Assembly: GCA_020439745.1 (NCBI GenBank)
Contig: JAGQSC010000036.1
Span: 1-64,000, forward strand
From: Acidobacteriota bacterium
Lineage (GTDB): Bacteria; Acidobacteriota; Holophagae; Acanthopleuribacterales; Acanthopleuribacteraceae
Direction of reading: 5' to 3'
DNA length: 64,000 nucleotides
Both the position numbers and the translations under genes were made by a program. Below are positions 32,912 to 47,144 of this stretch, piece after piece. Within the stretch, counting starts at the first letter, position 1; each line of letters starts with the position of its first letter. Below the pieces are notes generated by a model. It was not told where the DNA came from. It was given only the letters and a program-made list of their open reading frames with translations, and searched no databases.

Positions 32912-33589
32912 CTATTCAGATTCAAACGGCAGGCTCAGGTCGTTCGAAAGGATCGAAAAGACCTTGTGCACGCCGAGCATGGGACCCGTTCCGCTGGTGG
33001 AAACCTGTAGGTAGGCGGTAACCACGTCGTAGTTAAATGATGACGCATGATTCAGTCGACCATGAGGCACCCATACCCGCAACTGCCCTGCTTTCATGCC
33101 AACCTGGAACCCCGGGGAATCCATATACATCGGCATGCCGGGATTGGTGGGTGGCAGCACGGCATTCAGGTCTTTTGAAGCTGTGGCTTGCACTGAAAAG
33201 CCGCCCGGTACGCGGTCGTCCTTTTGCAGCACAACCCAATGCGTGTGGTATATCACACCGTCGTTTCCATGATCTCCATCTTGGTTCTCGTCCCAAAGTG
33301 GCGTGTCGTCGAAATCGGGATGCGATGTGATCGCCAAGGCAAGAAGTCCCTCGGCCTTGTCAAAACCAACCGTCATGGGCGAGAGATTGGTGATGAACAC
33401 ATAAGCAAGCACGGGGGCCTGGTCCAGAGTGCCCCTGGGTGTTGGTGTCGTGCCTCCGGCTACACCCTCGACTTCAAGTGTGAAGACCCAATGGAGCGAG
33501 TCCACTTGATTGATGACGCGTGCGGACTTTAGGGCAAAGTCTGCGTCGTTTGTGGGTATTTGTAACAAAATGATGAACCAAGCGGTCAT
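32912..33589 (-). CDS. Exported hypothetical protein
   Basis: A 225-residue protein with a short hydrophobic start (TAWFIILLQIP). The rest is beta-rich without recognisable motifs; notable parts are VFTLEVEGVAGG, DENQDGDHGNDG (an acidic, possibly calcium-binding loop), YHTHWVVLQKD and QLRVWVPHGRL. The His-containing YHTHWV stretch might bind metal, but this is a guess. It overlaps the TlpA-like gene upstream by four bases, so the two are cotranscribed. Function unknown. Confidence 0.6.
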   Translation of the reverse strand: MTAWFIILLQIPTNDADFALKSARVINQVDSLHWVFTLEVEGVAGGTTPTPRGTLDQAPVLAYVFITNLSPMTVGFDKAEGLLALAITSHPDFDDTPLWDENQDGDHGNDGVIYHTHWVVLQKDDRVPGGFSVQATASKDLNAVLPPTNPGMPMYMDSPGFQVGMKAGQLRVWVPHGRLNHASSFNYDVVTAYLQVSTSGTGPMLGVHKVFSILSNDLSLPFESE

Positions 33590-34095
33590 GACCTATCTCC
33601 CATCACTGGGCACAGCGGTCCACCGCCCATCACGGGTGCTCGGCCATTGGACCGGATGACGTCTTCATATGTACCCAGGTCAAGTCGTCCAAAATGACGC
33701 CAGACTTCCATTCCGTCAGCATCCAACAATACCGAACTCGGTGTTCCTTGAATGGACCATTGGCGCATGGTGCCAGGCACGGGATCGGAGCCGTTGTGAA
33801 CATCTATGGCAATAGGGAAGGTGTAGCGGAACTCCTGAATGAAAACGCTTAACGCGTCGGGTGCCATCTGAGCATGGTGTTCAAAAACAGAATGAATCGC
33901 GATCACTTGTAAATCCAACTTGTCCCGTTCATTCCATAGGTGCTGTAGTGTGGGAAGACTGTGCAGGACACATGAAGGGCAAAACATTTGAAAGAAATGA
34001 ACCAAGGTGGGTTTCCCTTGGAGCGAGCTTATTTCGAGCGGTTGACTGTTGATCCAGTAAGACAAATTCCACTGGGGAATGTGGTTGTGATTCAT
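33586..34095 (-). CDS. TlpA/ResA-like thioredoxin-fold protein
   Basis: A 169-residue redoxin: GKPTLVHFFQMFCPSCVLHSLP holds the CPSC redox pair (seen in HFFQMFCPSCVLHSLP), followed by LQVIAIHSVFEHH, a FPIAIDVHNGSDPVPGTMR insertion and the cis-proline strand QGTPSSVLLD. Members are thiol reductants or peroxiredoxin-like proteins. It has no signal peptide, so it is probably cytoplasmic. AAGGAG precedes the start. It is divergent from an HxlR regulator, whose family often responds to redox or reactive electrophiles, and it may be controlled by it. Confidence 0.8.
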   Translation of the reverse strand: MNHNHIPQWNLSYWINSQPLEISSLQGKPTLVHFFQMFCPSCVLHSLPTLQHLWNERDKLDLQVIAIHSVFEHHAQMAPDALSVFIQEFRYTFPIAIDVHNGSDPVPGTMRQWSIQGTPSSVLLDADGMEVWRHFGRLDLGTYEDVIRSNGRAPVMGGGPLCPVMGDRS

Positions 34096-34198
34096 GGCAA
34101 ACTCCTTTTGTGATACCCACCGCGCGGTTGGGTTCGTCTATGATGGCCATACACAGTCGCTGTGGAAACCCGGCACTTTTAGGTGTCTACCCCACAAA

Positions 34199-34537
34199 AT
34201 GGTTGGCATTGACATGAATGCAGGCGAAAAAAAAAGGGACTTGAAACACGTGGTCAGCGATATCGTCGGGTGCAAATGGAGTTTGGCGGTTTTGGCGGCT
34301 ATCCGTGATGGTGTCACCAGACCCGGCGCACTTGAAAGACATATTGACGGCATTTCAGCCAAGGTGCTCTCTCAGCGATTGAAAAAACTGACGCGTTATT
34401 CGATACTCACGCGAACTGAATACGCTGAGATACCGCCACGCGTTGAATACGAGATCACAGAGCAAGGAGCATCGTTGATAGAGATCATCGACGCCATAGA
34501 GGAACTCAACGGTCACTGGGTTTCCGAGCAGACATAG
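34199..34537 (+). CDS. HxlR-family transcriptional regulator
   Basis: A 112-residue winged-helix protein: GCKWSLAVLAAIRDGVTRPGALERH is the typical HxlR helix region, followed by GISAKVLSQRLKKLTRYSILTR (recognition helix) and YEITEQGASL. The Cys in VGCKW is at the place where redox-sensing HxlR proteins carry their reactive Cys. The start is uncertain: ATG 34199 and 34214 are both possible, and the frame opens at 34094. It is divergent from the TlpA-like gene and probably regulates it. Confidence 0.82.
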   Translation: MVGIDMNAGEKKRDLKHVVSDIVGCKWSLAVLAAIRDGVTRPGALERHIDGISAKVLSQRLKKLTRYSILTRTEYAEIPPRVEYEITEQGASLIEIIDAIEELNGHWVSEQT

Positions 34538-34567: not shown

Positions 34568-36763
34568 TCAACGCACTTGTGCAGTCACTAGGTCTCGGTA
34601 AGTCCCAGCCTTGGCCATGAGTTCTGAGTGGGTGCCTTGTTCTGTGATTTGGCCGTCTTTCAAAACAGCAATTATGTCGGCATTTTCAATGGTGCTCAAA
34701 CGTTGGGCAATGACCACCTTGGTGCATCGCAAGCTCTTCAGATTCTGTTGAATACGGCGCTCTGTGACCGTGTCCAATGCGCTGGTGGCTTCGTCTAACA
34801 GCAGGAGGAACGGGTCATGAACCAAGGCACGTGCCAAGGCCAATCTTTGTCGTTGACCGCCGGACAGGGTGGTCCCTTCATCCACCAAGATCGTGTCATA
34901 ACCCAAAGGCATGTCGAGAATCGTCGTGTGGATTTCAGCGATCTTGCAGGCCTTTACGACGCGTTCGAAGGGAGCGTCTGGCCTAGCCAGTACCAGGTTC
35001 TCGCGAATAGTGCCCGGAAATAGATATGGATGCTGCAAGACGACACCCATTTGCCTGCGTAACATGCGAAGATCCCATTCGTGAATGTTCGTGTCGTCCA
35101 GTGTGATTCTTCCATCGGTGGGTTTGAATAAGCCCGCAAGCAGGCTCCCAAGCGTGGACTTACCTGAACCAGATTGACCCACTAGAGCAAGCGTTAGGCC
35201 CGGTTCCAGTTCGAGGTTGATATGTCTCAAGACATCATTGGCTTGGGCATCGTAGCGAAATCTCAACGATTCTATCCTTAGCCTGCCCTGCAGTTGTGGT
35301 GGAGGCACCACGACATCAGCACCTTGCTCAGTAGGTGTGTGTACGACGTCGTCGATCCGGTCGAGAAGTGCCCCTAGGTCTTGAAGTCTGAGGCCCATGT
35401 CCACCAGTGAGGAAAGCGGTCCCAGGAAGCCTTCTGCAAGTGCGTTCAGGGCCAGCATCGTGCCTAAGGTCATTTGGCCACTGAGTACCAAATGTCCGCC
35501 GAAAATCAGTAAGATTAAAGGTGAACCCATCCTGGTGGCATCCATCAGGCTGTCGGTCCATGCCATCAGTCGACCCTTCCTGATATTCACATTCATCACA
35601 TTCACAAAGAGGTTGGACCATCGATCCACGGCATGGAATTCGGCACCGCAGGTTTTGAGGGTCTGCATGCCCCCTAACATCTGAACCTGATAGCTCTGTG
35701 ATTCAGCTTCTGCTTTGAGGTTCTCGGCCACAAGGTCTCGAACCCGTTTGCGAGCGAACACGAAAATCAAAAGCCGCACAGAGCCCAGCAACAACACCAA
35801 CGCACCGATTGCGGTACTGACCAAGAACAACGCGACTAAATAAAACATGACCAACACACCGTCCATCAGTGTGGACAAGGCTGATGAAGTTAAGAGATCG
35901 CGGATACTGGCATTGGAGTTGAGTCTCATCAAGAGGTCACCGGCGCCTCGCCTCTGGAAGAACGAGAAAGGCAGACGGACCATATGATCGACAAAGTCAA
36001 AGGTGAATTGCAGATCGAGTTTGCTTTGAAGGAACAACAATAGGTGGGCTCGAATAACAGAAGCCATCAGTCGGAAACCCACAATGGCGGTAAAGCCCAT
36101 TCCCATCAAGGTGAGAAGGGAGTAATCCCGATGGGGGACGACACGGTCGACCAGAGCACCTGTAAGCACTGGCAGGGCTAGAGCCAATAGCTGAATCACC
36201 AGAGCTAACGTGACGATTCGCAGGATCCACCCACGCGATGTGAGAATCTTGGCAAGATAGTGGCGAATGCGCGTGAAGGGGTTTTCTGCTTCAGACCCCT
36301 CAAACGACTCACTTTTCTCAAAGATCAGGGCCACGCCGGTAAAGCTCTTGTTCAATGCAGCCGCCGCCATTTTTCGCCGGCCAAAGGCTGGATCGATCAC
36401 CATGAATGCATCGTTGTTCACCCGTTCCAATACGACAAAGTGGTTGAACTCCCAGTGGAGGATAGCGGGTACCGACAACTGGCTGATTTGGTCGCAACTC
36501 ACTTTGACGGCGCGTCCGCGTAACCCGAAGTGCCTTGCTGTTTGCAACAGCGCGGCTGCGGATGTCCCGTCGCGTCCTAGTCCAACGGCCTCTCGTACTT
36601 CGCTCAATTTTGTGGATTTGCCGAAATAGGACAAAATCATGGCCAGACATGCTGCACCACATTCAGCGGCCTCCATTTGTTGGATGACGGGTATGCGAGG
36701 TTTTGGTTTCTTCCATTGAAGGCGCTTCAGCGCAGAGAATTGCCGCCAGGACTCAACGCTCAT
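34568..36763 (-). CDS. C39 peptidase / ABC exporter of the lanthipeptide operon (LanT)
   Basis: A 731-residue bifunctional exporter. The N-terminal C39 peptidase has MEAAECGAACLAMIL (Cys35 nucleophile), HWEFNHFVVLE (His) and VIDPAFG (Asp). Six membrane helices follow from about 170 to 440, then an ABC ATPase with GQSGSGKSTLG, LSGGQRQRLALARAL and LLLLDEATSALD. It would cut the lanthipeptide leader after the double glycine and export the core. It belongs to the NHLM/lantibiotic exporter type that works with HlyD-like adaptors. The gene is last in the operon and overlaps the GAF-adaptor gene by 11 bases. Confidence 0.93.
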   Translation of the reverse strand: MSVESWRQFSALKRLQWKKPKPRIPVIQQMEAAECGAACLAMILSYFGKSTKLSEVREAVGLGRDGTSAAALLQTARHFGLRGRAVKVSCDQISQLSVPAILHWEFNHFVVLERVNNDAFMVIDPAFGRRKMAAAALNKSFTGVALIFEKSESFEGSEAENPFTRIRHYLAKILTSRGWILRIVTLALVIQLLALALPVLTGALVDRVVPHRDYSLLTLMGMGFTAIVGFRLMASVIRAHLLLFLQSKLDLQFTFDFVDHMVRLPFSFFQRRGAGDLLMRLNSNASIRDLLTSSALSTLMDGVLVMFYLVALFLVSTAIGALVLLLGSVRLLIFVFARKRVRDLVAENLKAEAESQSYQVQMLGGMQTLKTCGAEFHAVDRWSNLFVNVMNVNIRKGRLMAWTDSLMDATRMGSPLILLIFGGHLVLSGQMTLGTMLALNALAEGFLGPLSSLVDMGLRLQDLGALLDRIDDVVHTPTEQGADVVVPPPQLQGRLRIESLRFRYDAQANDVLRHINLELEPGLTLALVGQSGSGKSTLGSLLAGLFKPTDGRITLDDTNIHEWDLRMLRRQMGVVLQHPYLFPGTIRENLVLARPDAPFERVVKACKIAEIHTTILDMPLGYDTILVDEGTTLSGGQRQRLALARALVHDPFLLLLDEATSALDTVTERRIQQNLKSLRCTKVVIAQRLSTIENADIIAVLKDGQITEQGTHSELMAKAGTYRDLVTAQVR

Positions 36764-38924
36764 GGGACCCCCCGACCACGGATTTCAGTGCTGGAATCAA
36801 GCTCATCAGGATGGATTCAGATCTCAACTTGATCTGGACCTCGCCTGTCATGCCATTGACCAGTGAGAAACTTTGGTTGTCCAGTTCAATTCTCGGGTTT
36901 TCCACTTGGGCATAGACCAGGGTAACCGGAGCGTTCATGCCCAGCATGTCCTGGGCTTGCGGACCCATGATACGGGTCGCCTCAGCCGGGCTGATGACTC
37001 CTTGACTGGTGCGATCGACCTTCAACTGGAGATCGTGCTCATAGCCATTCACGCGAAAACGGACCGTCATGCCTTCACTCAGTTGTGGTGCGAAATGGCC
37101 CGGCACACATCCAATTAAGGAAAAGGTTGGGTTTGGCTTGGTTAGGGTGAGCGCTATTTCACCAGACTGAAACCACTGGCCGTCGTGAATGCGCAGGTCA
37201 CTAGTGACGCCATCGTGGGGCGCACGAATCGCATTGCGCTCGATCGCTTGAAATAAGGCGTCGCGTTCGATGCGCAGTTGTCGAAGGGCCTGTTCAGAGG
37301 TGGGGTCGGATGGGTCCAGTAGTCGCTGAACCAAGTGGGTATTCCATCCTGCATCTAGTGCCTGCTTCCGGTCCTCTTGGTCCTGGGTCGTGATGGTGAA
37401 AAGGATTTGTCCAGCTTGAACTTCGGCGCCGGAAGGTACCTGAATCCCTTTGACGATTCCTGATCTCAATGCGGTGACCCGGGTTTCCTGGTTGGCTTGG
37501 ATCAAGGCTGGGCCCGTTGCATATTGGCTGACGCGGCCAATGGCTGCAAAGAGCAGCGCTATCGTAAAGATCACTGCCACACTTGCAAAGGCCCAACGTT
37601 CCCAAAATGGTGAAAACGGCAAAATGTCACCTTCGGAAAGTGGGTTGAGATGTCGTGTTGCCAAGGCCTCCTCATTGAACAGATGGGCGTTTTTGTTTCG
37701 CTGCTGTTGGCACATCATTTCAAATGACGTCTTGAGATTTTGAGCGATCAAGGGTGCGGCGAACAGGTCGCAAATCAGTGAACAAATCTGTTCTTCCTGA
37801 GATCCAAAGGGTGGGTCTTTGCGCGAGCGGGACACAGCAAGGATGCCGGCATTGCCTTGTATGTCCCTAAACGGTGCCAGTAGCACGCGGTCATCGGCAT
37901 CGCCCAACACATGGTCTGAAGTCGGGTCAAATGCACGGTGTGTGGCCAGCCGATCGAGATTGGTGAGTGTTCCTGTAGCGAGCACACAACCAAGGACACC
38001 TCGTCCGGTGGGAACAGTGACCCCCGATCCAACCAGCGAACCGTCGTAAGGATTGTTCATGAGACATATCGCTGCTTTTCCTTTGTTCAAATCAATCATG
38101 GATTTTGCCGCGAAATCCAAGGTGTCGCGAAATTCTCGCTGAATCGATAGTCGGCTGGCAGCTGCTTGCACTCTGGAAAGGTATTCCGATCGCAGCATCA
38201 GGCTGAGTCCACCGTCCAAACGCGCTGTCATATGACGTGCATAGTCCTGAAGAGATGCTTGAATCAATTGTTCGAGCATGTTGGGTTCGAGCCGTTGCGG
38301 ACCGATAAAATAAGCGTCGTCATCACCATTCGTTGGCGAAAAGACAATGAGATTCGTGAATCGAGCTGGATAGGTCCATTTCAAAGTACGCCACTGTGTT
38401 GCGGTCAATTGTTGATTGCCATCTGCCAACACAAGTAATGTGGCTACCTCCTCTTGCCGCAGAATCTCCATTGCTGTTTGAAAATGACTTACTTCTTTGC
38501 CTTCAAAGTTGAGTGGCTTTGCGGAACCAAGCCTGAGCGTCAACAGTTGAGCATGTGCACGTAAGTTGGCTCTGAGTCGAAATGTCATGGGATCAGAAGG
38601 CAGGAATGTCAATCCCGCTACCCCGATATCTGTTCCGTCGTCCAGACGCCGGATGGGGTCGACTAAACGGACCTGACACCAAACCTGTACCGTGGTCGAT
38701 TGAGGGGATAGCTTTGCCGCCAATAACCCATGATCGCCCGGTTTGAGATGGGCGTTCAGAGGATCATCGTAGAATACGAGTACGCCATGATCGTCCATGT
38801 ACCGCAGCTGCATCGTCTGCCATGTACCGTTCGACAAGAACTGAGCAGCTGCCGGTAGCCGGTAAACGGACGGATCGTCCTTTTCGGAGTACTTGCCTCC
38901 CCGTATTGCTTCAAAAGTGGTCAT
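36753..38924 (-). CDS. GAF-containing HlyD-type membrane fusion protein
   Basis: A 723-residue fusion. Residues 1-250 form an unrecognised region with a beta-rich, PilZ-like start (GTDIGVAGLTFLPS). Residues about 262-400 look like a GAF domain (LDFAAKSMIDLNKGKAAICLMN in part, VTVPTGRGVLGCVLATG, LLAPFRDIQGNAGILAVSR). One membrane helix lies at about 444-463, and residues 464-723 form a HlyD/lipoyl adaptor (ALRSGIVKGIQVPSGAEVQAGQ in part, IRAPHDGVTSDLRIHDGQW). The adaptor half should be periplasmic and dock the exporter, with the GAF half in the cytoplasm. Overlaps link it to both neighbours (14 and 11 bases). A ligand-gated exporter is inferred. Confidence 0.85.
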   Translation of the reverse strand: MTTFEAIRGGKYSEKDDPSVYRLPAAAQFLSNGTWQTMQLRYMDDHGVLVFYDDPLNAHLKPGDHGLLAAKLSPQSTTVQVWCQVRLVDPIRRLDDGTDIGVAGLTFLPSDPMTFRLRANLRAHAQLLTLRLGSAKPLNFEGKEVSHFQTAMEILRQEEVATLLVLADGNQQLTATQWRTLKWTYPARFTNLIVFSPTNGDDDAYFIGPQRLEPNMLEQLIQASLQDYARHMTARLDGGLSLMLRSEYLSRVQAAASRLSIQREFRDTLDFAAKSMIDLNKGKAAICLMNNPYDGSLVGSGVTVPTGRGVLGCVLATGTLTNLDRLATHRAFDPTSDHVLGDADDRVLLAPFRDIQGNAGILAVSRSRKDPPFGSQEEQICSLICDLFAAPLIAQNLKTSFEMMCQQQRNKNAHLFNEEALATRHLNPLSEGDILPFSPFWERWAFASVAVIFTIALLFAAIGRVSQYATGPALIQANQETRVTALRSGIVKGIQVPSGAEVQAGQILFTITTQDQEDRKQALDAGWNTHLVQRLLDPSDPTSEQALRQLRIERDALFQAIERNAIRAPHDGVTSDLRIHDGQWFQSGEIALTLTKPNPTFSLIGCVPGHFAPQLSEGMTVRFRVNGYEHDLQLKVDRTSQGVISPAEATRIMGPQAQDMLGMNAPVTLVYAQVENPRIELDNQSFSLVNGMTGEVQIKLRSESILMSLIPALKSVVGGSHER

Positions 38925-39798
38925 GGTCTTTCGGTTCCAGGAATACTTGGCAACTTGCGCCGGCGGGGGGATAAGAGTCGGCTTGAATCTGGCCCAGACA
39001 AAAGACTAATTGTGTGGGCTCATCGCGCTCAGGAGCTATGGACGTGACAACCCCTTGGTAGCGCATTTCAAATCCCATGAGTTTGAACGAGTCACCGGTA
39101 CGAATTTGACGGGTCAGATCGGGAGGGACCGCGAATCGAACGACGCCACGTGAAGGCGCTGTGACACTTAACATGGTTTGGCCTTGGCTGATGGTTTGGC
39201 CTAGTTTCAGTTGGATATGTTGAACCGTGCCTGAGATGGGTGAAACGATGTCAGTTTGGCTAGATTGTCGTATCAAAGCGTCCAGACGAATCTGTGCTTG
39301 CTGCTGCTCGGATTTGGCGGCGGATACGCGATGATCAGTACGCGCCAACTGCAACTCGGCTTCGCGTATCTCCGCGGCTGGATAGATAGACTGCGAAGCC
39401 CTCATCCGTTCAAGGTTCTCTTGCGCCTGGATTTGGTTGAGTTTGGCTTCTTCCAGAGCCGTGCGCGAGGCACGGAGGCTTGCTTCTGCGAGTTTCATGT
39501 CATCTGCCAGGTGATGGGCTTCCAACTGGACCAAGACTTCTCCTGCATCCACATTCGCGCCCTCGCGAACCTGCATCTGTTTGACAAACGCGTCCATGGG
39601 GCACGACAAACGAACCACTTCGTCCGACAACACCACACCCAAGAATGAAGGACTTTCAAGATGGTGTGTTTGACTTCGTCTTTGATCAGGTTCATCAACT
39701 TTGGATGCTTCAAGATCGACGCGAGGCGGATGGCGAAAGGCTAGCCATAATGCCGATGCACCCATCAGTCCTGCAAAAACGAGCAACGTCTTCAACAT
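38911..39798 (-). CDS. HlyD-family membrane fusion protein
   Basis: A 295-residue adaptor: one N-terminal membrane helix (LKTLLVFAGLMGASALWLAF), a lipoyl half (VKQMQVREGANVDAGEVLVQLEAHH in parts), a coiled-coil hairpin of about 75 residues rich in Ala, Glu and Arg, the second lipoyl half (ISGTVQHIQLKLGQTISQGQTM in parts) and a beta-barrel end. It would bridge the inner-membrane exporter and an outer-membrane channel. No outer-membrane channel gene lies nearby. The start is set at ATG 39798, overlapping the LanM stop by seven bases; the frame extends 11 codons further. Confidence 0.87.
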   Translation of the reverse strand: MLKTLLVFAGLMGASALWLAFRHPPRVDLEASKVDEPDQRRSQTHHLESPSFLGVVLSDEVVRLSCPMDAFVKQMQVREGANVDAGEVLVQLEAHHLADDMKLAEASLRASRTALEEAKLNQIQAQENLERMRASQSIYPAAEIREAELQLARTDHRVSAAKSEQQQAQIRLDALIRQSSQTDIVSPISGTVQHIQLKLGQTISQGQTMLSVTAPSRGVVRFAVPPDLTRQIRTGDSFKLMGFEMRYQGVVTSIAPERDEPTQLVFCLGQIQADSYPPAGASCQVFLEPKDHDHF

Positions 39799-42700
39799 GA
39801 TTCTGGGTAAGCCAATGCCAATGGATTGCAAATGGGTTGGCTGTAGCTAAGGTGTTCGAGCGCTAAACCAATCCCTGCCAGGCCACACATGAGACCGGGT
39901 ATCATGATCGGCACATCGATACCACAACGTGGACCGGATTGCTCAATCTGTTGACGTGCCATGAGTTCCCATCGGTACAAAGTGTCTTGAACGCCTTGAT
40001 TGACCAAATCAGAGGGATCCAAACTCTTCATGAGCAGTTCGGCCACCCACAGATTGCCGAGAATGCCGTGGCACAGACTGTGGTTGCCAATTGCGCCCCG
40101 GGCAAGGGTATTGTTCAGAGCCACGCGTATCTCTTGCCGCGTTGGATCGTCTCGGTAGCGATTGGGCATTAACGCGCGGCCTAATCCCACGCCCGGTGCG
40201 CCATGGCACCATTGACTCTCGTAATGTGGACCGGAACCCAACTCTCGCAGATCGGGCCAGTTCCCCAGTTTGGCATTGAAATGAGATCGCTCGTAGGTCA
40301 ATGCCCGAACCACGGTTTCCTCAATAAGGCCCACCAAGTATGAATGTCCGCCAATACGGTCCAAGGTGTCCGCTGCGCGGGCAAGAGCGCAGGCTATGCC
40401 TGCATTTCCGTGAGAGAACCCCAAAAGACCGGCGGGACTCTTTGAAAAGGGCCAAAAGCAGCCATCGTCATGCTTCACGGCCGAGCTGACCAGATGTCGA
40501 CTGCAGGCAATAATCAAGTGGACAGCACTGTCCGAGGGACACCGCGCGTGGATGGCACAAGCGTGCATCAGGGTGCCTGCTGCGCCTGCAATGATGTCGA
40601 AGAATCCGTCTTCTGAAACATTGTCGGCAAGGTATTTCATGTTTTCAGTGAAAGCGGGTAGGTCACCGAGACTGGGATCATGAGCGGCCATCTGGACCAT
40701 GGCGTAATACATGGAGCAAGTTCCGCTATAGCCGCCGTGCACCGCAAATTCATGGACGTCGATGTTCTGTCTCAATTCACGGAATATGCGATGAGTTACG
40801 TCCCGTATCTTTGGGTCATTGTTTTTGTGTTGAATCACGCTGAGAAACCAACCAATGCCACCATTGCCCCCATACAAATCGCTGCCGGTGGGATTAAACG
40901 TCCATGCACCGTCAGGTAGGATATCCATGCTTAACCAGGCTGCATCTTCTTGTCCCAAAAAGACTGAACGCATGAGTTGTTGGGTGATGTCGTCTCTTTG
41001 CTTGTTGGTATTCGAGACATTCCCAGATTGGTGTTGGGTCATGATGGAACCCACGGTCCCTTGAATGACAAAACACTGGTCCTGCATGTCCGAATCGCTC
41101 ATGGCGTTCAATCGGTGCATCATGTGATCAAAAGCCGAGATATGATCCAAGTCGCAGACATGGTTACCGCGACTGTCGCGTAATGAAATTTCGTCGGTCC
41201 TGGTCCAAAAGAAGGGAACATCTCCCGATCGCAGGTCTGACTTCTCATGGGGGACAATGCTTTGGTGAATTAATGAGGGTCCGTTTGATTTCCAAAGGTG
41301 ATCAAAAAGGTTGTCGCGGTCAAATCCGTGACGCATGTGGTCGGGATGGAGACCATCGTACAGAAGGTTTGAGTAGATCTTGGTGCCGCGCAATACAACA
41401 CGCGTCTTGACCCCTTTGAAACCCCGTAGGAGTTGTCCTAATTCGTTCTTTTGGGTTGAGATGAATCGGTACATCCATGTGAAACCTTGAATCAAGTCGC
41501 CAACGTGGTCGGTTACGGAAATGGCTTCACCGTCTTTGCTGGGTAGGTTGTCCGAGCGTTGGAGTTCCTTTTCGACGCGAATCTGGCGCATCTCGTCTGT
41601 ACCTGAACCTGCCCAATCGGGTACGGCACTTGGTAGGGTTTGCGCTTCTGCAGAGCCGAGTCCTCCCAAGTGGACGCCAGCTTGTTTGGCGCCACCCCAA
41701 ACCCGCCTAGGCAACATGCCCGTCTGCAGCACCGACTGCGACAGCCAGGAATAGGCATGGTCCCTTGCTGTCTTGCTGGGCGCGTATTCAGGGGATGGAT
41801 GTAGCAGTGTCTCCAAATCCACAAGTACGGGGTAAGACCCATGAGCAATGAGGTTCTCATGATGGAAATCAGTCGCACCTAACAGGTATAGGAGTGCCAA
41901 ATACGCGCCCTGGCGCCAGTAGAATTGGGTGATGCCACGGTTTGTGGTTTCTTGGCGAGACACGAAACTGCACCAGCCGTACTCGCCCCGATCAATGACG
42001 TCCGGGTAAACAAAAAGCGGACGATCCACGTCTTTGGATGTGGCGCTGTCGTTTATCCATTGCAGCAGCTTGTGAAACTGATGGTCTATGGCAAGCGACT
42101 TTGGTTTGTATACCAGTTGTGTTCGTGCGCCTTGGGCATTCTCAAAACCCAACATCCACACTGACTGGCCGCCACAGTGAAGATCAGATGCTCCACCCCG
42201 TGCATGAGTCCATTGTGCACCGGGGCATTCGGCCAACAGGCCGGCATCCAGTTGGTGCAAATCTGTCTTGACTCGATCGATCAGTAGTTGTGCGTTTGTG
42301 ACCCATCGGATGAGCGTCTCGGACACCAGTCGTGCAAGCACTTGGTACTCAGAAAATAGTCGCTGCCAGCCCTCGATGGTGCCAAGGATGCGGTTGCGGA
42401 AGTCGAGGAATCTCTGGTGCGGGGTGTCGCCCTTTAGTTTCTCTTCGAGTCTCGCTACGTTCAATTCCAAAACCAGCACACGGTGGCAGAGTCTGGTGAG
42501 TTGCTGGCAGAGGTCGTCCAATAGCTGAGGTTTCAGACGAATAAGATCCACGCGTTTGCAATCGTCGCTCGTGTTCAACTGCCGCCAGGCATAGTTGAGG
42601 AACGGGATCAGCGCGGGCGCGAAACTAGCGTCCTTATCAAATGAAGGGTGATGGGGTGCGGCTTCCCAACAATCGAAAACATCACACAGTTGACGGAGCC

Positions 42701-42968
42701 ACAGCTCCTTGTGATTTCCCATGCACCAATCGATGGTTGCCTGTGGTGCATCGTAGTGCCACTGTGTGTGCTGCCAGTGGGCAGCAAGAACACCCTGGTG
42801 CAGACCCTCCTGGATGACCTTGTTTCGATAATGAGATTCATCCAAACGAGCTCGTTTTGAGTAGTGGGCCTTGAATTGGTCGATCAGGTCCGGTTTGGGG
42901 TCGCAGCTTTCCCCGCTCAGTTCGTTGGGATAAGTAGCTCGCAAAAGGGTGTCAATTTGCGTAGACAT
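39792..42968 (-). CDS. lanM: Type 2 lanthipeptide synthetase LanM
   Basis: A 1058-residue bifunctional enzyme. The N-terminal DUF4135 dehydratase uses ATP to phosphorylate and eliminate Ser/Thr; its kinase-like motif TDFHHENLIAHGSYPVLVDLE (in parts FHHENLIAHG and VLVDLETLLHP) lies near residues 366-390. The C-terminal LanC-like cyclase carries the zinc ligands Cys921 (QWCHGAPG), Cys966 and His967 (SLCHGILGN). All key residues are present, so the enzyme should install (methyl)lanthionine rings in the product of the gene just upstream. Length is typical. It follows the precursor by about 120 bases, across a strong hairpin, and begins with ATG preceded by AAGGAGC-like spacing. Confidence 0.95.
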   Translation of the reverse strand: MSTQIDTLLRATYPNELSGESCDPKPDLIDQFKAHYSKRARLDESHYRNKVIQEGLHQGVLAAHWQHTQWHYDAPQATIDWCMGNHKELWLRQLCDVFDCWEAAPHHPSFDKDASFAPALIPFLNYAWRQLNTSDDCKRVDLIRLKPQLLDDLCQQLTRLCHRVLVLELNVARLEEKLKGDTPHQRFLDFRNRILGTIEGWQRLFSEYQVLARLVSETLIRWVTNAQLLIDRVKTDLHQLDAGLLAECPGAQWTHARGGASDLHCGGQSVWMLGFENAQGARTQLVYKPKSLAIDHQFHKLLQWINDSATSKDVDRPLFVYPDVIDRGEYGWCSFVSRQETTNRGITQFYWRQGAYLALLYLLGATDFHHENLIAHGSYPVLVDLETLLHPSPEYAPSKTARDHAYSWLSQSVLQTGMLPRRVWGGAKQAGVHLGGLGSAEAQTLPSAVPDWAGSGTDEMRQIRVEKELQRSDNLPSKDGEAISVTDHVGDLIQGFTWMYRFISTQKNELGQLLRGFKGVKTRVVLRGTKIYSNLLYDGLHPDHMRHGFDRDNLFDHLWKSNGPSLIHQSIVPHEKSDLRSGDVPFFWTRTDEISLRDSRGNHVCDLDHISAFDHMMHRLNAMSDSDMQDQCFVIQGTVGSIMTQHQSGNVSNTNKQRDDITQQLMRSVFLGQEDAAWLSMDILPDGAWTFNPTGSDLYGGNGGIGWFLSVIQHKNNDPKIRDVTHRIFRELRQNIDVHEFAVHGGYSGTCSMYYAMVQMAAHDPSLGDLPAFTENMKYLADNVSEDGFFDIIAGAAGTLMHACAIHARCPSDSAVHLIIACSRHLVSSAVKHDDGCFWPFSKSPAGLLGFSHGNAGIACALARAADTLDRIGGHSYLVGLIEETVVRALTYERSHFNAKLGNWPDLRELGSGPHYESQWCHGAPGVGLGRALMPNRYRDDPTRQEIRVALNNTLARGAIGNHSLCHGILGNLWVAELLMKSLDPSDLVNQGVQDTLYRWELMARQQIEQSGPRCGIDVPIMIPGLMCGLAGIGLALEHLSYSQPICNPLALAYPESC

Positions 42969-43052
42969 GTCTGCTCCTTGGGGTAATCAAGTTGTATGGC
43001 GTTAAAATACGGGTGTTTCACCGACTGCCTAAGCGGGTTTTGTTGGAGGAAC

Positions 43053-43080
43053 GGGACGAGAGGCGGCTACCTCTCGTCCC
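43053..43080 (-). promoter_or_regulatory. Perfect 11-pair hairpin between precursor and lanM
   Basis: GGGACGAGAGG (43053-43063) and CCTCTCGTCCC (43070-43080) are perfectly complementary around a six-base loop. The hairpin starts ten bases past the precursor stop and lacks a T run on the minus strand. Such an element usually works as a partial terminator or as a 3' stabiliser, giving much more precursor message than enzyme message. Confidence 0.75.
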
Positions 43081-43090
43081 ACCGACTTAC

Positions 43091-43363
43091 TTAGCAGGCC
43101 ACCGCAGAGTAGATGCAGTCACATACCGTGTGGTTGGACGACCAGCAGTCGAACGTGGGGCAGACGGCAGGCGCCGTACAGTTGCTGGTACAGATCCAAG
43201 GCTTGGTATTACATCCCGAACGGCTCAGCCAACCGCCAGCGGCATGAACTTGTTCAGCCTCTTCAGCGGTCAATTCCTGCATGCCTGCAGGGTGGTCAGG
43301 AACGTTCGTAGCCGTTTCCCGGAATGCTTCATCTTTCCATGCGCGCAGTATGTCTTTTTTCAT
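43091..43363 (-). CDS. lanA: Mersacidin/lichenicidin-type lanthipeptide precursor (LanA)
   Basis: A 90-residue precursor. The leader (1-44) opens MKKDILRAWKDEAFRETA, the pattern of the mersacidin/lichenicidin family, and ends ELTAEEAEQVHAAGG with a double glycine for C39 cleavage. The predicted core is 46 residues (45-90), starts WLSRSGCNTKPWICTS and ends CIYSAVAC. It holds eight Cys and eleven Ser/Thr, so up to eight thioether rings are possible; the final residue is Cys. AAGGAG sits seven bases before ATG. Only one precursor is visible and no LanFEG immunity genes are seen. Core length and Cys number exceed most mersacidin relatives. Confidence 0.93.
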   Translation of the reverse strand: MKKDILRAWKDEAFRETATNVPDHPAGMQELTAEEAEQVHAAGGWLSRSGCNTKPWICTSNCTAPAVCPTFDCWSSNHTVCDCIYSAVAC

Positions 43364-43653: not shown

Positions 43654-43665
43654 ATGGGACCCGTT

Positions 43666-44175
43666 ATGAGTGCGATCCAATCTGCACCAGGTCCGGTTTC
43701 TGACCTGACCTGGGACGAGATCTACCAGGAGTTGAAACGCTTGGCACATAGAAATCTCTACGCTTCCAGGCCGGGCCACACGTTGTCCACCACTGCCTTG
43801 GTGAACGAGGTGTACATCAAGCTCGTCAAGAGCCAGGAACTCAACCTCGCTGACCGCCAGCACCTGATGGCGCTATCGTGTAAAGCGATGCGCCAAGTGT
43901 TGGTTGACTACGCGCGGCGGAAAGCAGCGCAGAAGCGGCAGACGGATATTGTGGTTGATGCGCCACCACGATTAGCTCAATCCGATTTGTTGGCAGTTGA
44001 AGAGGCCCTCAACGCCCTGGCCAAGGTGGATCCGAGACTGGTTCAGTTGGTGGAATGCCGTTTCTATGGGGGACTGTCCAATGCAGAGACGGCGGAGCTC
44101 ATGGGCATGTCGCAACGAACCGTGGAACGCGACTGGTCTCGAGCCAGATCCTACCTACACGCTCTCTTAACCTGA
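43666..44175 (+). CDS. ECF sigma factor (TIGR02999-like, short N-terminus)
   Basis: A 169-residue sigma factor of the ECF group found beside serine/threonine kinases in Planctomycetes and Acidobacteria. Region 2 is visible as YQELKRLAHRNLYASRPGHTLSTTALVNEVYIKL in parts, with the HxLMALSCKAMRQVLVDYARR pattern. Region 4 has LAKVDPRLVQLVECRFYGGLSNAETAELMGMSQRTVERDW in parts. About 25 residues that normally precede region 2 in this group are missing. No anti-sigma gene is present; the kinase gene 23 bases downstream is the likely partner. An ATG at 43654 is an alternative start. Confidence 0.85.
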   Translation: MSAIQSAPGPVSDLTWDEIYQELKRLAHRNLYASRPGHTLSTTALVNEVYIKLVKSQELNLADRQHLMALSCKAMRQVLVDYARRKAAQKRQTDIVVDAPPRLAQSDLLAVEEALNALAKVDPRLVQLVECRFYGGLSNAETAELMGMSQRTVERDWSRARSYLHALLT

Positions 44176-44198: not shown

Positions 44199-47144
44199 AT
44201 GGACATCGATCAACTCAGGTCAATTGACCAAGCCTTTCAAGATGTGCTGGGTGAGGACGAGCCGCACCGTTCACACCTTCTACGGCGGTTGCGCCGGAAT
44301 TCTCCTGCCATCGCCGACGCTGTATTGGAACTTCTGAAAAACATGGATGCAGCGAACGAATACTTGGACCAAGTCCATCGCAAAGCGATTGACGAATGGA
44401 CGGGTGGCTGTCCGCAACCCGCTTCTCCGGTGGGGGAAGGGTGTCAGTTAGGTGCCTACAAGTTGCTTGCCCCTTTAGGACAGGGTGGCATGGGTAGTGT
44501 CTTTCTTGCCGAACGGTCCGATGGTGCCTTTGAGAAACAGGTGGCTATTAAGGTGATGCGTTATGCGCTGCCTCGGCCTACCGATCTGGATCGATTCCGT
44601 AAGGAGTGTCAACTGCAAGCGCAATTGGAGCATCCCAATATTGCACGCGTCCTTGATTCCGGAATCGAAGGCAGTACGTCATTCTTGGTGATGGAGTATG
44701 TTCAAGGCGAACCCATTGACCAGTACTGCTCGGCGCGATCGCTATCTGTCCGTGAACGTTTGCAACTGTTCGTGCAAGTATCGGACGCCGTACAGTACGC
44801 TCACCGCAAGCTGATCCTGCACCGAGACATCAAGCCATCCAATGTACTTGTTGACGAAGAGGGCCGTGTCAAATTGCTGGACTTTGGAATCGCGAAGATA
44901 CTCAGCGACCAAGATGATACGACGGCAACAGGTTTGCGGATGTTCTCGCCCGGTTACGCCAGTCCAGAGCAGTTGCTAGGTCTGGAGTTGACGACGGCCT
45001 CAGATGTTTATAGCCTTGGCGTTCTTTTGTTCGAGCTCTTAACGGGGGAAAAACCATTTTCGGAATCGCCCGTTGGACGCGTGTTCAGCGATTGGAAACA
45101 GTTGCCGCAGCTTCCCAGCAGTTGCCTGAGTGATGCCGAGTCCGGACCGGGTTCGAAGCATTTTTGCGCCCAATTAAAAGGCGATTTGGATAGCTTGATT
45201 TGCAAGGCACTTGAACCTGAAGATAGTCGGCGATACCACACCGTTGATGCCTTACGTCATGAAGTTGTTCGTTATCTGAACGGATTGCCCATTGAAGCTC
45301 GAGGCGACGCCTGGTCGTATCGAATTAGGAAGTTCGTGGGCCGTCACCGAACGGCCGTTGGTGTTGGTTTTCTTTTTGTCAGTGTGCTTATGGGTTTCTC
45401 CGTGGTGACCGCTATCCAGTCACGACAAATAAGCGCCGAACGTGACAAATACCAGCAAATGACGGATCACCTGACCGAACTGATCCACTCCTCCGATCCC
45501 GATCAATTTGGTGGTGAAGTTCTTTTTGCCGATGTGTTGAAGTCGTTTTCTGAAAAGCTGGAGAACTCGAAAGACTCAGCCAATAAGGCAAAAGTGCTTT
45601 CGATTATGGGCGAGGCCTATGAGAACCTGGGTCATTATCAAGAGTCAGAAGCATTGTTACGTCGGGCGCTGGCTATTCAATCCAGCGAACTGGGCGATCT
45701 TCATACAGATACCCTGTTTTCCCAACAGGTATTGGGGATCGTGCTTTTGCATTTGGGTATGCGCAGCGAGGCCGAAACGCTTGTTCGTGACCTGATCGAA
45801 AAACGCGTACAGAAGGACGGCGCTTTGCATCACGAAACCTTGATGGCCCGTCAATTGTTGGCCGTCGTGATTGGCGAACAGGGTCGTTATGAAGAGGCTA
45901 GGGAGGCCTTGCTTCAGGTGGTCGCACATCTCGAATCTTTTGGAGAGGGCGATGAAGGCTATTTGGGTGCCTTGGAGAATTTGGCGCGTTATGAATGCAA
46001 ATCCGGCCACCAGGACGAGGGTCTTGCTCGAATGCGCAGCACACTGGCTTTGAAGCAAAGAGTTTTTGGTCGTAATCACCCGAATACTTTGTCTGCTTGG
46101 GTCAACTTGGGTGCCGAGTTGGTGAACCGAAATGACAAACAGGAGGCGACTCGTGTGTTGGAGGAGTCTCTGGCCGCGCATCGAGAGGTGTATGGCCCGA
46201 ACCATCCGAAGACGTTTGCTGCCGAGCAAAATGTGGCCCGTCTGTTCAACCTCATCGATCGCAGCGAGGAAGCACTTGTGTTGGCAGAGTCCTGTCTCAA
46301 TGGGAAACGGGAAGTATTGGGCGAGATGCATCCATCCACGTTGGCTTGCCAGAGCGTACGCATCAGCATCTTACGGCAATTGGGCAGGCATGAAGAAGCA
46401 CTCACGGCAGCGTGGGAAAACGAACGTGCGCAAATCCAGGTGACTGGAGCAGAACATCCACATACTATTTTTGCGATGGACATGGTGACCACATTACTTT
46501 TGGATCTCCACAGATTTGATGAGGCCAGGACCCAAATTGAGAAAACCCTGATCGTCAAGACTCAGACTTTCGGCCCCAACAGTCAACAAGTCATTGCCTC
46601 TATGGCCAACTTAGCAACTGTGCTGCAAAGTGATGGACGCCTCCGTGAGGCAGTGGCCTTGAAGGAGGATGTGCTCGATCGCCTAACCTGTGACGTCGAT
46701 GCAGTGTCCTCTTCGCAACTGGTCTATATGAACAATCTAGCCATGGGCTACAAGGCCAATGGCCAATTCGATCGATCCGAGGAAGTATTTCTCGAGTGTC
46801 TTCGTCAGTATCAAACCATTGAGGGTCCGACCCATTTCTATACGGTATGTACTGAAATCAATGTGACCGATGTATTGCGACTTGGCGGGAAGTTGAATGA
46901 AGCTCACACCATGGCTGAGTTAGCTATGAACCATGCGGATCTCTACCTTCCGTCGGGACACCCTCGGGTGGCATTGGCGTTGAACAACTTGGCAATGGTC
47001 TGGTTTGAATTGGGTCATCAGGCCGATGCCCATGAAGCTTTGATGATGGCTTTGGCCATGGTTCCACCTGAGCATCCCTTCGCAACACGGTTCGAAGAGA
47101 ATCTCCGTTTGTTAGAGCCCGACCTGAAGTTGGCACTCCATTGA
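44199..47144 (+). CDS. Serine/threonine protein kinase with transmembrane helix and TPR array
   Basis: A 981-residue receptor-like kinase. The kinase domain (about 85-355) has LGQGGMGSVFLA, AIKVM, LHRDIKPSNVLV (208-210 HRD) and LLDFGIAK (228-230 DFG), so it should be active. A membrane helix lies at about 386-406. Residues about 430-975 hold roughly twelve TPR units with the kinesin-light-chain-like phrase HPNTLSAW / HPKTFAAE / HPSTLACQ every 42 residues. The TPR part would be periplasmic and may bind a partner. ATG 44199 with GAGGAAC upstream is the start; the frame runs back into the sigma gene in another frame. Likely cotranscribed with it. Confidence 0.9.
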   Translation: MDIDQLRSIDQAFQDVLGEDEPHRSHLLRRLRRNSPAIADAVLELLKNMDAANEYLDQVHRKAIDEWTGGCPQPASPVGEGCQLGAYKLLAPLGQGGMGSVFLAERSDGAFEKQVAIKVMRYALPRPTDLDRFRKECQLQAQLEHPNIARVLDSGIEGSTSFLVMEYVQGEPIDQYCSARSLSVRERLQLFVQVSDAVQYAHRKLILHRDIKPSNVLVDEEGRVKLLDFGIAKILSDQDDTTATGLRMFSPGYASPEQLLGLELTTASDVYSLGVLLFELLTGEKPFSESPVGRVFSDWKQLPQLPSSCLSDAESGPGSKHFCAQLKGDLDSLICKALEPEDSRRYHTVDALRHEVVRYLNGLPIEARGDAWSYRIRKFVGRHRTAVGVGFLFVSVLMGFSVVTAIQSRQISAERDKYQQMTDHLTELIHSSDPDQFGGEVLFADVLKSFSEKLENSKDSANKAKVLSIMGEAYENLGHYQESEALLRRALAIQSSELGDLHTDTLFSQQVLGIVLLHLGMRSEAETLVRDLIEKRVQKDGALHHETLMARQLLAVVIGEQGRYEEAREALLQVVAHLESFGEGDEGYLGALENLARYECKSGHQDEGLARMRSTLALKQRVFGRNHPNTLSAWVNLGAELVNRNDKQEATRVLEESLAAHREVYGPNHPKTFAAEQNVARLFNLIDRSEEALVLAESCLNGKREVLGEMHPSTLACQSVRISILRQLGRHEEALTAAWENERAQIQVTGAEHPHTIFAMDMVTTLLLDLHRFDEARTQIEKTLIVKTQTFGPNSQQVIASMANLATVLQSDGRLREAVALKEDVLDRLTCDVDAVSSSQLVYMNNLAMGYKANGQFDRSEEVFLECLRQYQTIEGPTHFYTVCTEINVTDVLRLGGKLNEAHTMAELAMNHADLYLPSGHPRVALALNNLAMVWFELGHQADAHEALMMALAMVPPEHPFATRFEENLRLLEPDLKLALH

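What the first reader, a model, noticed from the sequence alone, without database searches (positions are those of the whole stretch)
34568..43363. Five-gene type 2 lanthipeptide operon with two adaptors and a C39 exporter
Seen: precursor, LanM, two HlyD-type proteins and a C39-ABC exporter lie in order on one strand, the last four overlapping by 7 to 14 bases. Known: LanM plus C39 exporter plus double-glycine leader makes a type 2 lanthipeptide. Inference: Gram-negative export through two different adaptors, with no LanFEG immunity genes visible, is unusual and may yield a new compound.
Basis: partly seen in the sequence, partly recalled or inferred. Interest (0 to 1): 0.85.

Follow-up and report, generated by a model that had tools for sequence, protein, structure and literature searches.

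The report
Lanthipeptide operon with sensor-fused exporter
This acidobacterium carries a five-gene operon that very probably makes and exports an undescribed ring-stapled peptide (a class II lanthipeptide), and one of its two export adaptors carries a large signal-sensing region inside the cell, which hints that cell signals may control peptide release.

Summary
LanA, LanM, HlyD1, HlyD2 and a C39-ABC exporter lie in order on the minus strand; the last four genes overlap by 7, 14 and 11 bases. A second species of the genus has the same operon with the same divergent ECF sigma factor and Ser/Thr-kinase genes, inside otherwise different flanks, so the conserved unit is seven genes. The core peptide (46 aa, 8 Cys) was found only in these two species.

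HlyD2 directly before a C39-ABC gene, often with HlyD1, recurs in class I and class II lanthipeptide loci of Acidobacteriota, Myxococcota/Deltaproteobacteria and one gammaproteobacterium.

Its first ~440 residues are predicted cytoplasmic PilZ-like, receiver-like and GAF domains, followed by one membrane helix and the HlyD adaptor. GAF-fused relatives occur in about a dozen other loci; one carries FHA instead of PilZ. Alg44 (PilZ-TM-HlyD) is the nearest known design. Canonical c-di-GMP motifs are missing, so the signal is unknown. I found no published description. Biosynthesis is near certain by homology; the sensor architecture is well supported; gating of export is inferred.

The parts
43232..43363 (-). 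lanA leader (aa 1-44), mersacidin/lichenicidin-type leader ending in Gly-Gly
   Evidence: TIGR03898 38.8 bits > 23.5, aa 4-39; 82% identical to the G004 leader
43094..43231 (-). lanA core (aa 45-90): WLSRSGCNTKPWICTSNCTAPAVCPTFDCWSSNHTVCDCIYSAVAC, 8 Cys and 11 Ser/Thr
   Evidence: 75% identical to G004 with all 8 Cys kept; no other similar core among the fetched loci
43053..43080 (-). Perfect-stem hairpin just after lanA, conserved in G004; likely limits read-through or stabilises lanA mRNA (inferred)
39792..42968 (-). lanM, bifunctional class II lanthionine synthetase (dehydratase + LanC-like cyclase)
   Evidence: TIGR03897 757 bits, PF13575 358 bits, PF05147 154 bits; conserved zinc-site Cys921, Cys966, His967 and dehydratase motifs
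38911..39798 (-). hlyD1, periplasmic adaptor with N-terminal membrane anchor (start at ATG 39798; the ORF list begins at TTG 39831)
   Evidence: HlyD_3 59 bits, HlyD_D23 39 bits; hydrophobic N-terminus
36753..38924 (-). hlyD2, sensor-fused adaptor: PilZ-like / receiver-like / GAF / TM / HlyD
38556..38864 (-). PilZ-like domain of HlyD2 (aa 21-123), canonical c-di-GMP motifs absent
   Evidence: Foldseek best hits PilZ domains incl. Alg44; VIA Z 9.6-11.8; relative L127 passes Pfam PilZ 24.1 > 22.5; motif check
38223..38555 (-). Receiver-like (probably pseudo-receiver) domain of HlyD2 (aa 124-234)
   Evidence: VIA Z up to 11.4 to response-regulator receivers; low-to-middling pLDDT
37695..38195 (-). 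GAF domain of HlyD2 (aa 244-410)
   Evidence: VIA Z 19.0 over 150 residues, rmsd 2.7; Pfam GAF over cut-off in the G004 orthologue and many relatives, below it in the window copy
37536..37595 (-). Single transmembrane helix of HlyD2 (aa about 444-463)
   Evidence: hydropathy maximum at aa 445; helix 439-462 in the model
36774..37535 (-). Periplasmic HlyD adaptor part of HlyD2 (aa 464-717)
   Evidence: HlyD_3 35 bits; Foldseek MacA E 3e-12
34568..36763 (-). C39 peptidase-ABC exporter (PCAT/AMS type) with intact C39 Cys/His/Asp motifs, Walker A and LSGGQ
   Evidence: PF03412 128 bits, PF00664 114 bits, PF00005 116 bits; motifs; 72% identical to G004
43654..44175 (+). Divergent ECF sigma factor, part of the conserved unit
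   Evidence: TIGR02999 164 bits; 74% identical and in the same place in G004
44199..47144 (+). Ser/Thr protein kinase with TPR repeats, part of the conserved unit (start at ATG 44199)
   Evidence: Pkinase 166 bits; about 54% identical in G004; start

Best explanation
The operon makes and secretes a class II lanthipeptide. LanM dehydrates Ser/Thr in the 46-residue core of LanA and closes thioether rings with its Cys residues. The C39 domain of the ABC exporter then cuts behind Gly43-Gly44, and the peptide leaves through a tripartite channel of the ABC exporter, HlyD1 plus HlyD2 as adaptors, and an unlinked TolC-type outer-membrane protein. HlyD2 carries a cytoplasmic PilZ-like/receiver-like/GAF input region tied by one membrane helix to its adaptor domain, so it most likely couples an intracellular signal, or docking of a cytoplasmic partner, to assembly or opening of the exporter. 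Transcription is probably controlled by the divergent ECF sigma factor with its kinase partner, and a conserved hairpin after lanA probably keeps precursor above enzyme. Shown: gene content, domain architecture, conservation and the seven-gene unit. Inferred from homology: chemistry and export. Inferred without a direct test: signal gating by HlyD2, control by the ECF/kinase pair, and the role of the hairpin.
For: Family hits over curated cut-offs for LanA, LanM and the exporter domains. The same five-gene operon plus ECF and kinase in Holophagae OFTM365, and no other window gene found within 20-75 kb of that contig apart from one weaker ABC match. Purifying selection on every part, the sensory domains included (41-48% identity there against pS about 0.8). 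HlyD2 domains: GAF Z 19 and MacA-type adaptor, PilZ and receiver folds, Pfam PilZ and GAF over cut-off in relatives. HlyD2 lies directly before C39-ABC in class I and class II lanthipeptide loci, GAF-fused in about a dozen other loci, one with FHA. Six outer-membrane-factor proteins elsewhere in the genome. ECF and kinase genes also sit beside HlyD2-C39 in L177 and near it in L117.
Against: No product, expression or transport data. The window's PilZ-like domain lacks RxxxR and [DN]xSxxG, so classical c-di-GMP control is not supported. The GAF of the window copy is below the Pfam cut-off, and the N-terminal models are of middling confidence (mean pLDDT 67 and 61). Short HlyD2 proteins without the sensor region serve the same cassette in Archangium and in a gammaproteobacterium, so the sensor is not needed for export as such. 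The genome has ten ECF factors of this subfamily over the cut-off, so adjacency alone does not prove regulation.
Confidence: 0.62

Rival explanations
1. The cytoplasmic region of HlyD2 is not a signal sensor but a docking platform: degenerate PilZ, receiver and GAF folds used as protein-binding modules that hold LanM, the leader peptide or the ABC ATPase next to the exporter, so that modification and export are coupled.
For: PilZ motifs are missing; the receiver-like domain lacks an obvious acidic pocket (sequence, my reading); the region is less conserved than the adaptor part (41-48% against 52%); it sits in the operon with the enzyme and exporter.
Against: The GAF fold is kept in nearly all long relatives while the N-terminal module changes between PilZ-like, receiver-only and FHA, a pattern more usual for sensors; the cassette works with several unrelated synthetases (LanM, LanB/LanC).
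Confidence: 0.3
2. An ordinary class II lanthipeptide operon whose second adaptor merely carries a neutral fusion; the only news is a new precursor core.
For: All five genes belong to known families; short HlyD2 homologues exist without the fusion.
Against: The fused region is under purifying selection between species and recurs in several bacterial classes with the same GAF-TM-HlyD order.
Confidence: 0.12
3. The product is a signalling peptide rather than an antimicrobial, which would explain the absence of LanFEG immunity genes.
For: No LanFEG-like ABC transporter found nearby; the core has no Glu and no CTxTxEC lipid II-type motif of mersacidin or lichenicidin alpha peptides (core; motif from my own knowledge).
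Against: Gram-negative producers may not need LanFEG, because the outer membrane and the exporter give protection (general knowledge).
Confidence: 0.25

Closest known systems
Class II (LanM) lanthipeptide systems with mersacidin/lichenicidin-type leaders (TIGR03897, TIGR03898)
   Same: LanM with dehydratase and cyclase domains, TIGR03898 leader, double-glycine cleavage by a C39-ABC exporter
   Different: Core peptide found only in this genus; no LanFEG; two periplasmic adaptors; no second precursor
Type 1 secretion with PCAT/AMS exporters, as in microcin export (reviewed in PMC8277102)
   Same: C39-ABC exporter plus HlyD-type adaptors, outer-membrane factor supplied in trans
   Different: Two distinct adaptors, one with a ~440-residue cytoplasmic input region
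Alg44 of alginate secretion (PilZ-TM-HlyD; domain architecture in PMC4594306)
   Same: Cytoplasmic PilZ fold joined by a TM helix to a periplasmic HlyD-type domain; the Alg44 PilZ structure 4rt0 is among the best fold hits
   Different: Adds receiver-like and GAF domains, serves a peptide ABC exporter, lacks the c-di-GMP motifs
TriABC-OpmH (two adaptor genes triA and triB in one pump operon; PMC8277102)
   Same: One transporter with two adaptor genes
   Different: RND drug pump without a cytoplasmic sensor region
NHLM/NHLP export system (TIGR03794/03796/03797; PMC2887384)
   Same: Peptidase-ABC gene and HlyD-like gene beside a RiPP precursor; TIGR03796 is the best exporter model
   Different: All three models score below cut-off and there is no ABC2 gene
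cNMP-binding-domain C39-ABC exporter of Scytonema tolypothrichoides (L051)
   Same: A cytoplasmic ligand-sensing fold fused to a peptide export component near LanM
   Different: There the sensor is fused to the ABC exporter (PF00027, 37.3 > 27.5), here to the adaptor

Membership tests
Class II lanthipeptide biosynthesis | LanM with DUF4135 dehydratase and LanC-like cyclase domains | tested here: met
   TIGR03897 757 > 304 bits; PF13575 and PF05147 over cut-off
Class II lanthipeptide biosynthesis | Zinc-binding Cys/Cys/His of the cyclase domain | tested here: met
   C921, C966, H967 invariant in four LanMs
Class II lanthipeptide biosynthesis | Precursor with leader, double-Gly site and Ser/Thr/Cys-rich core | tested here: met
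Class II lanthipeptide biosynthesis | (Methyl)lanthionine rings in the product | not testable with these tools
   needs expression and mass spectrometry
Mersacidin/lichenicidin precursor family (TIGR03898) | Leader model over cut-off | tested here: met
   38.8 > 23.5 bits
Mersacidin/lichenicidin alpha-type lipid II binders | CTxTxEC-type motif with Glu in the core (my own knowledge) | tested here: not met
   Core contains no Glu (sequence)
PCAT/AMS exporter | Active C39 domain (Cys, His, Asp) fused to ABC exporter | tested here: met
   ECGAACL at 34, NHFVVL at 107, IDPA at 123, Walker A at 529, LSGGQ at 633
NHLM/NHLP export system | TIGR03796, TIGR03794 and TIGR03797 members over cut-off | tested here: not met
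   614 < 853; HlyD1 29.1 and HlyD2 17.2 < 156; no ABC2 gene
Alg44-like c-di-GMP-controlled adaptor | PilZ fold, TM helix, HlyD domain in that order | tested here: met
   (predicted structures)
Alg44-like c-di-GMP-controlled adaptor | RxxxR and [DN]xSxxG c-di-GMP motifs | tested here: not met
   Neither motif is at the PilZ site of the window protein; relative L127 has NISRAG but no RxxxR
GAF-TM-HlyD adaptor group described here | GAF domain before the TM helix of an adaptor encoded directly before C39-ABC | tested here: met
Lantibiotic LanFEG immunity | ABC transporter genes next to the operon | tested here: inconclusive
   None among the flanking genes tested; the rest of the genome was not searched for LanFEG

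The most novel reading that the evidence does not exclude
Lanthipeptide exporters of Acidobacteriota and some Deltaproteobacteria form a family of signal-gated type 1 secretion systems: a GAF-centred cytoplasmic sensor, with PilZ-like, receiver-like or FHA modules in front, is built into the periplasmic adaptor and switches peptide export after translation.
Probability: 0.4. Interest if true: 0.82.

Novelty: new variant of a known kind. Interest (0 to 1): 0.6.

Why it matters
Control of peptide antibiotic production is usually sought in transcription. An adaptor that carries its own cytoplasmic sensor would place a control point at the export step and would show how an envelope-spanning channel can be wired to intracellular signals in one polypeptide. 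The pattern recurs in class I and class II lanthipeptide loci of several bacterial classes, so it also gives a genome-mining handle (GAF-TM-HlyD next to C39-ABC) for lanthipeptides in poorly explored phyla. The core peptide itself is undescribed as far as I could search.

Tried and rejected
The first genome-contig scan with LanM alone found no relative; the second, with an alignment, worked. NHLM system membership was rejected on cut-offs. c-di-GMP binding in the canonical way was rejected for the window protein. A promoter-like element upstream of lanA is partly alike in the two species (TTTGCGTTGA and TGGCGG), but spacing differs and my fixed-spacing pattern did not recover the window site itself, so the genome scan with it is uninformative. 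The thioredoxin-like, HxlR and 225-aa genes at 32912-34537 were considered as cluster members and rejected, because no relative was found in the 55 kb around the G004 operon. Long and short HlyD2 adaptors do not form two clean clades, and the tree is poorly resolved. Literature searches for PilZ/GAF/FHA-HlyD adaptors in lanthipeptide or bacteriocin export gave nothing relevant; only open-licence papers are held.

Full report
Observation. The five ORFs lie as described. LanA matches the mersacidin/lichenicidin leader model TIGR03898 (38.8 > 23.5 bits), LanM matches TIGR03897 (757 > 304), both adaptors match HlyD_3, and the last gene is a C39 peptidase-ABC exporter. HlyD1 is best started at ATG 39798; the overlaps are then 7, 14 and 11 bases. 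The only LanC-like match in the 5.1-Mb genome is this LanM.

Organism. Class-wide search and a named contig place the genome in Acidobacteriota, class Holophagae. The one same-genus genome held (G004) has a contig of 486,746 bases that also appears under the title "Holophagae bacterium isolate OFTM365".

Conserved unit. OFTM365 has LanA (78% identical over 88 residues), LanM (54-56%), HlyD1 (42-44%), HlyD2 (46%) and C39-ABC (72%) in the same order, with the same divergent ECF sigma factor (74%) and TPR Ser/Thr kinase (54%). Within 20-75 kb of that contig no other window gene was found; the only extra match is a partial 36% ABC-transporter hit to the exporter. So the seven genes form the conserved unit. 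Synonymous sites are saturated (pS 0.75-0.84), while pN is 0.14-0.41 for all genes and 0.37-0.44 for the sensory domains of HlyD2, so all parts are under purifying selection. A perfect-stem hairpin at 43053-43080, directly after lanA, is conserved in both species.

Peptide. The core is WLSRSGCNTKPWICTSNCTAPAVCPTFDCWSSNHTVCDCIYSAVAC; the sister core keeps all eight cysteines and the whole TVCDC-YSAVAC end. No similar core was found beside the 80 nearest LanM loci. It contains no Glu, so the CTxTxEC lipid II-type motif known from mersacidin-like peptides (own knowledge) is absent.

The second adaptor. HlyD2 has 723 residues where the plain adaptor needs about 315-340. Its strongest hydrophobic segment is at 444-463, which puts residues 1-440 in the cytoplasm. 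Structure prediction with seven relatives gave GAF (residues 244-410; Z 19.0 over 150 residues, rmsd 2.7) and a MacA-like adaptor. Prediction of residues 1-243 gave a PilZ-like barrel (21-123; Foldseek best hits are PilZ domains, among them Alg44 and YcgR; VIA Z 9.6-11.8) and a receiver-like fold (124-234; Z up to 11.4). The models are of middling confidence (mean pLDDT 67 and 61), but relatives support them by sequence: L127 passes Pfam PilZ (24.1 > 22.5) and GAF (52.9 > 22.4), and the sister protein passes GAF (30.6 > 22.4). The window's PilZ-like domain lacks RxxxR and [DN]xSxxG, so classical c-di-GMP binding is not expected.

How widespread. HlyD2 stands directly before the C39-ABC gene in the loci where both could be seen, often with HlyD1 beside them. 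This is seen in class II loci (window, OFTM365, a Thermoanaerobaculia bacterium L128, gammaproteobacterium L117) and class I LanB/LanC loci (L127, L150, L155, L157, L177, L179). GAF-fused forms pass Pfam in L126, L127, L136, L150, L151, L157, L173-L176 and L178; L151 has an FHA domain in front (31.6 > 20.7). L158 and L180 encode a GAF protein without the adaptor part before C39-ABC. Archangium and L117 have short HlyD2 without a sensor. In Holophagae only the two sister species have the full fusion; in Thermoanaerobaculia 13 of 149 genomes have a relative, nine with open frames above 600 residues. The tree is too weakly resolved to count gains and losses.

Mechanism. Chemistry and export follow from the families (LanM; PCAT exporters cutting at Gly-Gly, PMC8277102). 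The outer-membrane partner must come from elsewhere; the genome has six candidate proteins. The working idea is that HlyD2 passes an intracellular state to the exporter. The constant GAF and the exchangeable front modules (PilZ-like, receiver-like, FHA) fit a sensor; the missing motifs leave a docking role open. The ECF/kinase pair is conserved with the operon and also lies next to HlyD2-C39 in L177 and near it in L117, but the genome holds ten such ECF factors over the cut-off, so the regulatory link is an inference.

Comparison. Alg44 (PilZ and HlyD_3; PMC4594306) is the nearest design and TriABC the nearest two-adaptor pump (PMC8277102). The NHLM export system (PMC2887384) was tested and not met. 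A fused sensor on the exporter itself exists in Scytonema L051 (cNMP-binding domain on C39-ABC). No paper in the searched library describes sensor-fused adaptors in lanthipeptide export; the library holds only open-licence papers, so this is not proof of novelty.

Verdict. The operon is a new member of class II lanthipeptide systems. The adaptor makes it a new variant of peptide type 1 secretion.

Noticed in passing
L051:15363-18092: C39-ABC exporter with an N-terminal cyclic-nucleotide-binding domain (PF00027) near a LanM in Scytonema tolypothrichoides, another sensor-fused peptide exporter.
   Followed up: partly
L151:8531-11305: FHA-GAF-TM-HlyD adaptor of 924 aa before C39-ABC in Deltaproteobacteria bacterium Ga0077550, which has four such cassettes in one genome.
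   Followed up: partly
L158:9689-10687 and L180:9349-10323: Proteins of 332 and 324 aa with a GAF domain but no HlyD domain, encoded directly before C39-ABC, LanC and LanB; possibly split or truncated relatives of HlyD2.
   Followed up: no
L035:12932-13482 and L039:9097-11689: Other members of the same family have unrelated LanA/LanM loci with several precursors; in L039 the LanM match is split over two frames.
   Followed up: no
window 33586-34537: TlpA-like thioredoxin with a CPSC site, divergent from an HxlR regulator, right behind the operon; no relative found around the sister species' operon.
   Followed up: partly
window genome, ten loci: Ten ECF sigma factors of subfamily TIGR02999 over the cut-off in one 5.1-Mb genome.
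   Followed up: no
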